Source of the DNA: Gemmataceae bacterium
GTDB lineage: Bacteria; Planctomycetota; Planctomycetia; Gemmatales; Gemmataceae
DNA length: 64,000 nt
Direction: 5' to 3'
Assembly (NCBI GenBank): GCA_009691845.1
Contig: SIAJ01000010.1
Span: 1 to 64,000, forward strand
Below, one piece after another: positions 2,027-4,527 of this stretch. Every line of letters starts with the position of its first letter. Position 1 is the first letter of the stretch. Position numbers and translations under genes: made by a program. The notes below the pieces were generated by a model, which was not told where the DNA came from, searched no databases, and worked only from the letters and a program-made list of their open reading frames with translations.

Positions 2027-3289
2027 TCATACGCGAGCAGGGTAGAGCACTTTCCGCGTCCCGTTCTTGGAAAACAGAACCAGGCCGCCCTCTGAGCTAT
2101 TCACTTCTACCAAGCAGCCCGGATCGCCTGCGGCATGCTGTTTCAGGATCGCTTCCATGGACTGCACGATTGCCACGCAATTGCGGTCGGCGGAGAGGTC
2201 GTTGTAAGACAGCGATTGCATTGCCTTCAATCTTGCCGGTCGTTCATCGACTGGCCCGCCGAATTCGACGGTTGCGACCTCCTCGAAGAACCGCTGTAGT
2301 ATTTCGATTCCGTATCCGCGTTGCGAACGATCGCCCCAGGGTTCGACAAACGAACCGTTGTAATGATGGTTGGGCGTGTTCTTCAGTTCGTTCGGCGTGC
2401 GGCCCTCGATGCAGACCTCGACGCCGCGCTTGCGTTGATGAGCGATCCAGACGCCGTTATCGAAACGAAATTGCACTTCTTGATCCACGTAGCCGGGAAA
2501 ATTGTCCGGCGTCACCCAGCTCGTGTGGATGTCGAACGCGGCCTCACGCTGATCGGGGTGGGTGTAGATAACCTGAAGTTGAACCGAGTCCCAGGTCGGG
2601 CCAGTGGCAGGGCCGACCTGGCCTCGCTGACCCGTGGCCGTGATTCGAGTGAGCTTCCAATGGGGGCCGAACGAGAAATCGATGAGCTTGAGATAATGCA
2701 CCGCAACGTAGGTTCCCGGATTGCGGCCCGTGAGCCATTCGGAGAATTGCGATCCGCTAATCGACTTTGGCTCCAGGAGAGAGCAGTAGCCATTGTTGAC
2801 GTGTTTCAAAACGTCATCGACAACATGGGTTCGCAGTTTCTTGTGATCCGGATCGGCCAGCTTGTGATAGACGACTTTCGCGAGCACCCCCTTGGCATCG
2901 GCCAGCCGTTGCAACTCGTCCAGTTCTTGAAGCGTGAGAACGGACGGTTTTTCGATCAACACATGCTTGCCGGCTTCGAGAGCCAGTTTGGCGGGCGCGA
3001 AGTGCCGATCATCAGGCGTGGCCACGCAAATCGCGTCCACGTTGGTCGCGGCCAACCGGGCGACTGCATCGTTCCCTGAGAAACTTTGAAGGGCGGGGAA
3101 CTCCGGCCGATACCGTTCGACGCGTGAGCCAGTCCGCGAAGCCACGGCCGCGAGTTCAAGTTCGACCTGCCCGTAGTCGCGGCGAAATAAACCGTCGCGT
3201 TTGGCTGAGACAAACATCGGCCGATAGGTCTCATCGAAGATCATGCCGAGGCCGACCATGCCGGCGCGGATGCGATTGGAGTTGGTCAT
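2027..3289 (-). CDS. Gfo/Idh/MocA family oxidoreductase
   Basis: N-terminal Rossmann-like MVGLGMIFDETY, VDAICVATPDDRHFAPAKLALEAGKHVLIEKPSVLTLQE motif. Confidence 0.9.
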   Translation of the reverse strand: MTNSNRIRAGMVGLGMIFDETYRPMFVSAKRDGLFRRDYGQVELELAAVASRTGSRVERYRPEFPALQSFSGNDAVARLAATNVDAICVATPDDRHFAPAKLALEAGKHVLIEKPSVLTLQELDELQRLADAKGVLAKVVYHKLADPDHKKLRTHVVDDVLKHVNNGYCSLLEPKSISGSQFSEWLTGRNPGTYVAVHYLKLIDFSFGPHWKLTRITATGQRGQVGPATGPTWDSVQLQVIYTHPDQREAAFDIHTSWVTPDNFPGYVDQEVQFRFDNGVWIAHQRKRGVEVCIEGRTPNELKNTPNHHYNGSFVEPWGDRSQRGYGIEILQRFFEEVATVEFGGPVDERPARLKAMQSLSYNDLSADRNCVAIVQSMEAILKQHAAGDPGCLVEVNSSEGGLVLFSKNGTRKVLYPARV

Positions 3290-3351: not shown

Positions 3352-3379
3352 ATTTAACATAAGATACATTATCGGACTC
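3352..3379 (-). other. dif-like: dif-like XerC/XerD recombination site (28 bp), minus orientation
   Basis: Minus strand: GAGTCCGATAA-TGTATC-TTATGTTAAAT (11+6+11); XerD arm identical to E. coli dif (GGTGCGCATAA TGTATA TTATGTTAAAT). Confidence 0.6.
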
Positions 3380-3428
3380 ATCCGATCGGACTCGCTTGTC
3401 CCGGAGTTCGCCTCGGTCCTTTTCTGTG

Positions 3429-3456
3429 TGGTCCGATAATGTCTGTTATGTTAAAT
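3429..3456 (+). other. dif-like: dif-like XerC/XerD recombination site (28 bp), plus orientation
   Basis: TGGTCCGATAA-TGTCTG-TTATGTTAAAT; XerD arm identical to E. coli dif. Confidence 0.6.
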
Positions 3457-3540: not shown

Positions 3541-4527
3541 TCAAGACGATTTTCCGCCGCTGGCCTCTCGCGGTTCCAGGAACACGCCCATCTTTCGGAA
3601 CTTGTTGTAACGCTCGTCGAGCAGGCGATCGAGCTTCTTTGTTTTGAGTTCGCGGATCGACCGGAGCAGATAGGATTTCAAGGTCGTGCCCATCTCGCGA
3701 GGCTCGCGATGAGCACCGCCGAGCGGCTCGTGAAGTACGTCGTCAATAACGCCCAGCGATGCCAGGTGCTTGGAAGTCAATCGCAGCGCCTCGGCCGCCC
3801 GGGGCTTCGTTTCCTCGTTGGCGACTTTCCACAGGATGCCCGCGCATCCCTCGGGAGAGATTACCGAATAGTAGGCGTGTTCAAGGACTGCAATTCGATC
3901 TCCGACTCCAATGCCCAATGCCCCGCCGGATCCCCCCTCCCCGATCACAACACAAACGATTGGCGTCGGTAGCCGCGACATCTCCAGGATGCTGGTCGCG
4001 ATGAGTTGAGCCTGGCCCCGCTCCTCGGCTCCGATACCCGGAAACGCACCAGGGGTGTCGATCAGGCAGATGATTGGCAAGTGAAATTTGGCCGCCAGCT
4101 TCATCTTGTTCAGTGCCTTGCGATAACCCTCGGGATGGGCGCAACCGTAATAACACGCCTGGCGTTCTTTCAGGGTGTGGCCTTTTTGATGACCGACGAG
4201 AAGGACCTTCGAGTTCCCCAAACGAGCGAAGCCGCAACGGATGGCCTGGTCGTCCCCAAATGCCCGATCGCCGCGCAGTTCGACGAACTCCTCGAAGATC
4301 ATCGAAACGTAATCCATTGTTTGCGGGCGCTCTGGATGCCGGGAGACCAGAACCGTCTGCCACGGCGTGAGAGACGAGTAGGTCTTTTTCAACAACCCGG
4401 AGAGTTCGCGGCGGATGCGTTTGATCTCTTCGCTCATATTCGCAGTCGCGCTCGCCCCCTGCTCTAAACGCTTGAGAACGTCTTCGAGGGCGTGGATTTC
4501 GGTTTCAAACGGCAACGGTGCTGCCAT
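3541..4527 (-). CDS. accA: Acetyl-CoA carboxylase carboxyltransferase subunit alpha
   Basis: Full-length AccA-like sequence: YVSMIFEEFVELRGDRAFGDDQAIRCGFARL, LPIICLIDTPGAFPGIGAEERGQAQLIATSI, VIGEGGSGGALGIGVGDRIAVLEHAYYSVISPEGCAGILWK. Confidence 0.97.
   Translation of the reverse strand: MAAPLPFETEIHALEDVLKRLEQGASATANMSEEIKRIRRELSGLLKKTYSSLTPWQTVLVSRHPERPQTMDYVSMIFEEFVELRGDRAFGDDQAIRCGFARLGNSKVLLVGHQKGHTLKERQACYYGCAHPEGYRKALNKMKLAAKFHLPIICLIDTPGAFPGIGAEERGQAQLIATSILEMSRLPTPIVCVVIGEGGSGGALGIGVGDRIAVLEHAYYSVISPEGCAGILWKVANEETKPRAAEALRLTSKHLASLGVIDDVLHEPLGGAHREPREMGTTLKSYLLRSIRELKTKKLDRLLDERYNKFRKMGVFLEPREASGGKSS

What the first reader, a model, noticed from the sequence alone, without database searches (positions are those of the whole stretch)
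3352..3456. Two dif-like Xer recombination sites in inverted (D/C ... C/D) orientation 49 bp apart
A 27 bp inverted repeat (25/27) in the accA-Gfo/Idh intergenic region is not a generic hairpin: each arm parses as an 11+6+11 Xer site. Plus site: TGGTCCGATAA TGTCTG TTATGTTAAAT. Minus site: GAGTCCGATAA TGTATC TTATGTTAAAT. The XerD arm equals E. coli dif (GGTGCGCATAATGTATATTATGTTAAAT) 11/11, and the XerC arms share GTCCGATAA. A single chromosomal dif is the norm. Two inverted sites with different central hexamers recall pdif modules or IMEX scars, or a dif duplicated as a mobile miniature element. The 49 bp between them also repeats ATCGGACTC.
Basis: partly seen in the sequence, partly recalled or inferred. 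Interest (0 to 1): 0.85.

Follow-up and report, generated by a model that had tools for sequence, protein, structure and literature searches.

The report
Paired inverted dif sites at terminus
In a whole order of Planctomycetes (Gemmatales), the single DNA site that most bacteria use to untangle fused chromosomes is replaced by two facing copies at a helix-tuned spacing, which are kept mutually mismatched and occasionally flip the DNA between them; this architecture appears not to have been described before.

Summary
Two 28-bp dif-like sites (3352-3379 minus, 3429-3456 plus) face each other XerC-to-XerC across 49 bp, and hold the only TTATGTTAAAT copies in the 5.7-Mb genome. They are not a MITE, a plasmid pdif module or a mobile-element scar. 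They are the chromosomal dif of the order Gemmatales, in double form. Pairs occur in 78 of 105 Gemmatales genomes, in both families, and in 0 of 294 other genomes of the class. Those, where inspected, carry one dif, mostly beside the same gene, accA, so the pair arose in place. In closed genomes it lies 43-50% of the chromosome from dnaA; in one it sits on the GC-skew switch. XerC, XerD and FtsK-gamma are present. Two constraints stand out: spacing is helically phased (about 10.6-bp period, 37 genera, p about 6e-11), and the central base next to the XerD arm differs between the two sites in 78 of 78 pairs. The sites still recombine: one MAG holds both orientations of the segment on one flank, and two sister species differ by an inversion. 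Pontibacter and Magnetococcales have similar pairs. I read it as a two-site dimer-resolution locus with mutually incompatible sites; no experiment has tested this.

The parts
3352..3379 (-). dif site proximal to the Gfo/Idh gene: XerC arm GAGTCCGATAA, centre TGTATC (last base C), XerD arm TTATGTTAAAT on the outer side
   Evidence: fits the Gemmatales site consensus
3380..3428 (.). 49-bp spacer between the two XerC arms; sequence not conserved among relatives, length in helical register with the rest of the order; holds a second ATCGGACTC (3385-3393), a partial XerC-arm copy
3429..3456 (+). dif site proximal to accA: XerC arm TGGTCCGATAA, centre TGTCTG (last base G), XerD arm TTATGTTAAAT on the outer side
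   Evidence: fits the Gemmatales site consensus
3541..4527 (-). accA (acetyl-CoA carboxylase carboxyltransferase alpha), conserved neighbour of dif across the class
2027..3289 (-). Gfo/Idh-type oxidoreductase, the usual neighbour on the other side of the pair in Gemmatales

Best explanation
This is the chromosome-dimer-resolution locus (dif) of the Gemmatales, in a two-site form. Two XerCD sites face each other with their XerC arms inward and XerD arms outward, at helically phased spacing. SHOWN by sequence: the locus is the class-wide accA-linked dif, at the terminus opposite dnaA in relatives; both sites are kept; the base next to the XerD cut always differs between the two; the two sites do recombine with each other now and then in nature. 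INFERRED: XerC and XerD occupy both sites. FtsK arriving from either replichore meets a XerD arm first and activates that site. Each site recombines with its identical copy on the sister chromosome to resolve dimers. The mismatch blocks XerD-first exchange between left and right sites, which between sisters would create inverted dimers. Leaky left-right exchange in cis flips the spacer. The helical phasing implies that the two XerCD complexes must sit on one face of the DNA and touch, directly or through a bending protein.
For: Only dif-like sites in the genome. Pairs in 66 of 105 Gemmatales by a strict pattern and 78 with wider or more degenerate cases; 0 of 294 other class members, which where inspected have one site and no partner within 130 bp. 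accA linkage shared with single-dif outgroups; six state changes on an AccA tree, read as one gain and up to five losses. Terminus: dnaA-to-pair distance about 43-50% of the chromosome in six genomes; GC skew positive in 10/10 samples before and negative in 8/10 after the pair in G065. XerC and XerD above curated cut-offs and FtsK-gamma in 15 of 15 genomes. Spacing period about 10.6 bp, R=0.80, 37 genera, Rayleigh p about 6e-11, 0 of 20000 jittered sets. Last central base differs in 71/71 pairs plus 7/7; chance about 6e-8 at genus level; the other five positions are not enriched. Inversions: G036 contigs C329 and C397 and G085 versus G018, with breakpoints that fit the XerD and the XerC cut respectively. 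In E. coli FtsK-activated XerD exchanges strands first (PMC5052618); missing homology on the XerD side excludes XerD in VGJ-phi (PMC5357621).
Against: No binding, cleavage or dimer-resolution experiment exists. About ten Gemmatales genomes have a single site, so the second site is dispensable on evolutionary time. Some Magnetococcales pairs have identical centres, so incompatibility is not universal for such pairs. GC skew in one closed genome (G001) is too weak to confirm the terminus. Square-planar tyrosine-recombinase geometry makes cis synapsis over 26-70 bp hard, so the physical reason for the phasing is open.
Confidence: 0.62

Rival explanations
1. One site is the working dif; the other is a helically phased accessory XerCD-binding site that shapes or regulates the complex and does not normally recombine.
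For: Helical phasing is typical of architectural sites. Single-site species exist within the order.
Against: Natural inversions require cutting at both sites. The mismatch rule at the XerD-proximal base is needed only if both sites are live for XerD. The C-ended centre has changed sides at least 10 times, so no side is fixed as the master.
Confidence: 0.22
2. A phase-variation switch: Xer-driven inversion of the spacer changes expression of the downstream Gfo/Idh gene.
For: Both orientations exist in one MAG. The pair often sits just upstream of the Gfo/Idh start.
Against: The spacer is not conserved and most pairs do not align. In several genomes Gfo/Idh is kilobases away or not found nearby. 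Orientation is stable within genera such as g15 and g21. Outgroups have the same site singly at accA.
Confidence: 0.06
3. Scar or miniature module of a dif-using mobile element (IMEX or pdif type).
For: dif-using elements exist in the class: G054 carries about 14 kb with Zot-like and Rep proteins between two direct dif copies. Acinetobacter pairs of this shape appear.
Against: No element between the sites; a single gain at the base of the order and retention in both families; helical phasing and mismatch rule.
Confidence: 0.04
4. A hairpin, transcription terminator or operator pair between accA and Gfo/Idh that only resembles dif.
For: Intergenic inverted repeat between co-oriented genes.
Against: Single-site outgroups carry no such inverted repeat. 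The pattern matches dif arm by arm, lies at the terminus, and no other dif is present. Hairpin stability explains neither helical steps in loop length nor an obligatory mismatch.
Confidence: 0.02

Closest known systems
Chromosomal dif / XerCD / FtsK system (E. coli type)
   Same: 11+6+11 site with an E. coli-like XerD arm, terminus position, XerC, XerD, FtsK-gamma, one locus per genome
   Different: Two inverted sites instead of one, helically phased, with an obligatory mismatch at the XerD-proximal central base, and natural inversions between them
pdif modules of Acinetobacter plasmids
   Same: Pairs of XerCD sites in inverted orientation with differing centres
   Different: pdif sites are scattered on plasmids and bound gene cassettes (own knowledge); here a fixed chromosomal pair encloses about 26-70 bp of non-coding DNA and takes the place of dif
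IMEX (CTX-phi, VGJ-phi, TLC-phi) at dif
   Same: Central-region mismatch on the XerD side restricts XerD exchange (VGJ-phi, PMC5357621)
   Different: No element present; sites inverted, not direct; vertically inherited
XerC-mediated inversion in Ureaplasma (mba locus, PMC3599477)
   Same: Xer-family recombinase inverting DNA between short inverted repeats
   Different: Ureaplasma inverts phase-variable loci distinct from its putative dif site; here the inverting sites are the chromosomal dif itself

Membership tests
Chromosomal dif (XerCD site) | 28-bp site with XerC arm, 6-bp centre, conserved XerD arm | tested here: met
   both sites fit; XerD arm TTATGTTAAAT
Chromosomal dif (XerCD site) | Located at the replication terminus / GC-skew switch | tested here: met
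   In relatives only, since the window's genome is a draft: G065 skew flips at the pair; dnaA-to-pair distance about 43-50% in six closed or near-closed genomes. G001 skew too weak
Chromosomal dif (XerCD site) | XerC, XerD and FtsK with gamma domain encoded | tested here: met
Chromosomal dif (XerCD site) | A single site per chromosome | tested here: not met
   Two sites at one locus in 78 Gemmatales genomes
Chromosomal dif (XerCD site) | Resolves chromosome dimers in an FtsK-dependent way | not testable with these tools
   needs genetics or biochemistry
pdif module | Sites bound a gene cassette, usually on plasmids, in multiple copies | tested here: not met
   49-bp non-coding spacer, chromosomal accA synteny, one copy
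IMEX / dif-integrated element | Mobile element flanked by direct dif copies | tested here: not met
   Inverted sites, no element; contrast G054, with direct copies and phage-like genes
MITE / repeated element | Many genomic copies at unrelated loci | tested here: not met
   One copy in the genome
Invertible (phase-variation) switch | Segment found in both orientations | tested here: met
   In relatives, not in the window's own pair: G036 holds both orientations; G085 and G018 differ by an inversion
Invertible (phase-variation) switch | Conserved regulatory content whose orientation controls a gene | tested here: not met
   Spacer not conserved; neighbour gene absent or distant in several genomes. 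Expression itself could not be tested

The most novel reading that the evidence does not exclude
The paired, inverted, helically phased dif is a distinct type of dimer-resolution machine. The two XerCD sites of one chromosome form a cis complex that cannot complete exchange because of the enforced mismatch, holding Xer in check until FtsK arrives from either side. It evolved independently at least three times (Gemmatales; Pontibacter and Botryobacter in Bacteroidota; Magnetococcales).
Probability: 0.3. Interest if true: 0.9.

Novelty: new variant of a known kind. Interest (0 to 1): 0.78.

Why it matters
dif is normally described as one site per chromosome, and a published survey could not predict it in its one Planctomycetes genome (PMC3025954). 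Here a whole order uses two facing sites, and comparative genomics exposes two strong design rules: helical phase, and a forbidden match at the first base XerD would exchange. The rules suggest that both sites are active and that cross-recombination between them is selected against, which gives direct predictions about Xer synapsis, strand-exchange order and FtsK approach. Similar pairs in Pontibacter and Magnetococcales would make it a recurrent solution rather than a curiosity.

Tried and rejected
MITE or repeat family: rejected, one copy. Terminus by GC skew in G001: inconclusive, skew too weak; replaced by G065 and dnaA distances. KOPS-like skewed k-mers around the pair in G001: no convincing excess over control positions. 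Idea that one side always holds the same centre: rejected, the C-ended centre lies on the Gfo side in 36 and on the accA side in 22 of the sequences on the tree, at least 10 switches. Idea that the centres are kept different overall: rejected, only the last base is enriched. General claim that paired dif always has different centres: rejected, Magnetococcales pairs can be identical. Invertible promoter for Gfo/Idh: disfavoured. Literature searches for a paired, double or invertible chromosomal dif, and for dif in Gemmata, found none in the held library.

Full report
WHAT IS THERE. The two sites are exactly as described: minus strand 3352-3379 GAGTCCGATAA/TGTATC/TTATGTTAAAT and plus strand 3429-3456 TGGTCCGATAA/TGTCTG/TTATGTTAAAT, XerC arms inward, 49 bp apart. 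TTATGTTAAAT occurs nowhere else in the 5.71-Mb, 169-contig genome, and the 131-bp unit has no other copy.

RELATIVES. A lax single-site search found sites in 40 of 60 relatives, and aligned reading showed that in the same family they nearly always come as an inverted pair. A strict pair pattern matched 66 of 105 genomes of the order and 0 of 294 other genomes of the class, with 0 matches to the backwards control. Pairs outside that pattern's gap range or with arm variants add twelve (five in the table; seven), giving 78. The seven include four further genomes of the sister family (G037, G038, G039, G042). Single sites remain in about ten Gemmatales genomes (G003, G008, G034, G086, G087, G088, G091, G104, G118, G119); most of those were scored for a degenerate partner and none was found, the last two only by pattern. 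Genomes where nothing was found are mostly incomplete. Record titles (Gemmata sp., Fimbriiglobus sp., Zavarzinella formosa, Gemmataceae) identify the clade as Gemmatales.

SAME LOCUS AS THE ANCESTRAL SINGLE dif. Outgroup genomes of other families carry one site, such as GTCCGATAATGTCCGTTATGTTAAAT, downstream of accA just as here. On an AccA tree the Gemmatales form one clade (support 99). Six changes of state suffice, read as one gain and up to five losses; at least one 'single' row (G108) is a pair cut by the contig end. The pair therefore arose in place. In outgroup G054 about 14 kb with Zot-like and G2P-type replication proteins lies between two direct dif copies: a filamentous-phage-like element that used the site, which supports its identity as a working dif.

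TERMINUS. Taking the dnaA copy that begins several closed contigs as origin marker, the pair lies at 50.0% of the chromosome in G065, about 50% in G064, about 48% in G009 and G080, 49.1% in G091 and 42.6% in G001 (site positions; percentages are my arithmetic). In G065, GC skew is positive in all 10 samples before the pair and negative in 8 of 10 after it. G001 skew was too weak to use. XerC (298 aa; 340.7 bits, cut-off 335.15) and XerD (301 aa; 333 bits, cut-off 329.6) are encoded by this genome, and FtsK-gamma is present in all 15 genomes tested, this one included.

DESIGN RULE 1: HELICAL PHASE. The gap between the 28-mers clusters at 26-29, 34-38, 45-49, 56-60 and 70 bp. With one value per genus (37 genera), the concentration at about 10.6 bp is R=0.80, Rayleigh p about 6e-11; 0 of 20000 sets jittered over one turn reached it. 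Genera are not fully independent, so the p-value is approximate, but five length classes recur on unrelated spacer sequences.

DESIGN RULE 2: FORBIDDEN MATCH. The two centres are never identical. Across positions only the last base, next to the XerD arm, is special: different in 71 of 71 pairs (34 of 34 genera, against 21.6 expected; 0 of 3000 re-pairings) and in the seven added pairs. Chance at genus level is about 6e-8. In E. coli FtsK-activated XerD makes the first strand exchange (PMC5052618), and lack of homology on the XerD side of the centre excludes XerD in VGJ-phi (PMC5357621). The rule is what selection against XerD-first left-right exchange would produce, and it implies that both sites are live.

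THE SITES DO RECOMBINE. In MAG G036 two contigs share 48 identical bases of flank ending in the XerD arm, then carry the centre-XerC-spacer segment in opposite orientations; all 68 bases of one tail are the exact reverse complement in the other. Joining by assembly error would need an overlap of only about 10 bp. Between sister species G085 and G018 flanks and centres are colinear, but the spacer aligns only as reverse complement (score 22 against 6 for the best of 5000 shuffles) and the outer XerC-arm base is swapped. The first crossover lies between the centre and the outer XerD arm, the second between the outer XerC arm and the centre, bracketing the two Xer cut positions. In G083 and G069 contigs stop 2 bp outside the XerC arm, as expected where both orientations coexist, though this is indirect. 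The C-ended centre has changed sides at least 10 times. None of this was observed for the window's own pair.

MECHANISM. Best reading: a two-site dif. XerD arms point outward to both replichores, so FtsK from either side meets XerD first; each site resolves dimers with its sister copy; left-right exchange is blocked at the XerD step but leaks, flipping the spacer. Between sisters, left-right exchange would give inverted dimers, a plausible source of the selection. Why helical phase is needed is not settled; a cis contact between the two XerCD complexes is the simplest inference. The synapsis-geometry argument rests on general knowledge of Cre-type recombinases, not on a tool result.

ELSEWHERE. 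The same arrangement turned up in about 20 Pontibacter species (gap 31-33 bp; the TTTATA-type site always on the same side relative to a neighbouring gene where that could be read), in Magnetococcales (30-32, 41, 52 bp; some centres identical), in marine Flavobacteriales, and in Acinetobacter, probably as pdif. In seven of eight Pontibacter and Magnetococcales genomes tested the pair holds the only such sites; the eighth has two further ones. These gaps are about half a turn out of phase with Gemmatales. They were not placed relative to the terminus.

NOVELTY. Searches of the held literature found no paired chromosomal dif and none for Gemmata; the one Planctomycetes genome in a published survey failed prediction (PMC3025954). 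Subscription journals are largely absent from that library, so prior description cannot be excluded.

Noticed in passing
L346 (G054:C1:3561000-3577000): About 14 kb between two direct dif copies with the same TGTCCG centre, encoding Zot-like and G2P-type replication proteins plus an HD-CE protein: looks like a filamentous-phage-like element integrated at a planctomycete dif.
   Followed up: partly
G065:C1:4496861-4496885 (L347): A third dif-like site (ACCGATAATAAAAGTTATGTAATGT) about 4.1 kb from the pair; the genes between include ordinary ones (kinase, oxidoreductase, TIM-barrel protein), so not an obvious mobile element.
   Followed up: partly
L155, L159, L163, L167, L171, L174, L179, L184, L193, L194, L196, L198, L200, L202, L205, L207, L209, L216, L218, L221, L223, L230: Pontibacter and Botryobacter carry an inverted dif pair with two distinct XerC arms (AAGTCTTATAA-type and GTCACTNATAA-type), same order relative to the neighbouring gene wherever it could be read, gap 31-33 bp.
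   Followed up: partly
L156, L161, L168, L175, L203, L210, L232: Magnetococcales MAGs carry inverted dif pairs (gaps 30-32, 41, 52 bp), some with identical centres such as GATGTA/GATGTA, which should be freely invertible.
   Followed up: partly
genomes: The Planctomycetia genomes searched have two dnaA-like genes: a short one (about 340 aa) that starts several closed contigs, and a longer one (about 480-640 aa open frame) at a separate place.
   Followed up: no
window 3371-3393: ATCGGACTC occurs twice, 14 bp apart, the second copy being a partial duplicate of the XerC arm inside the spacer.
   Followed up: no
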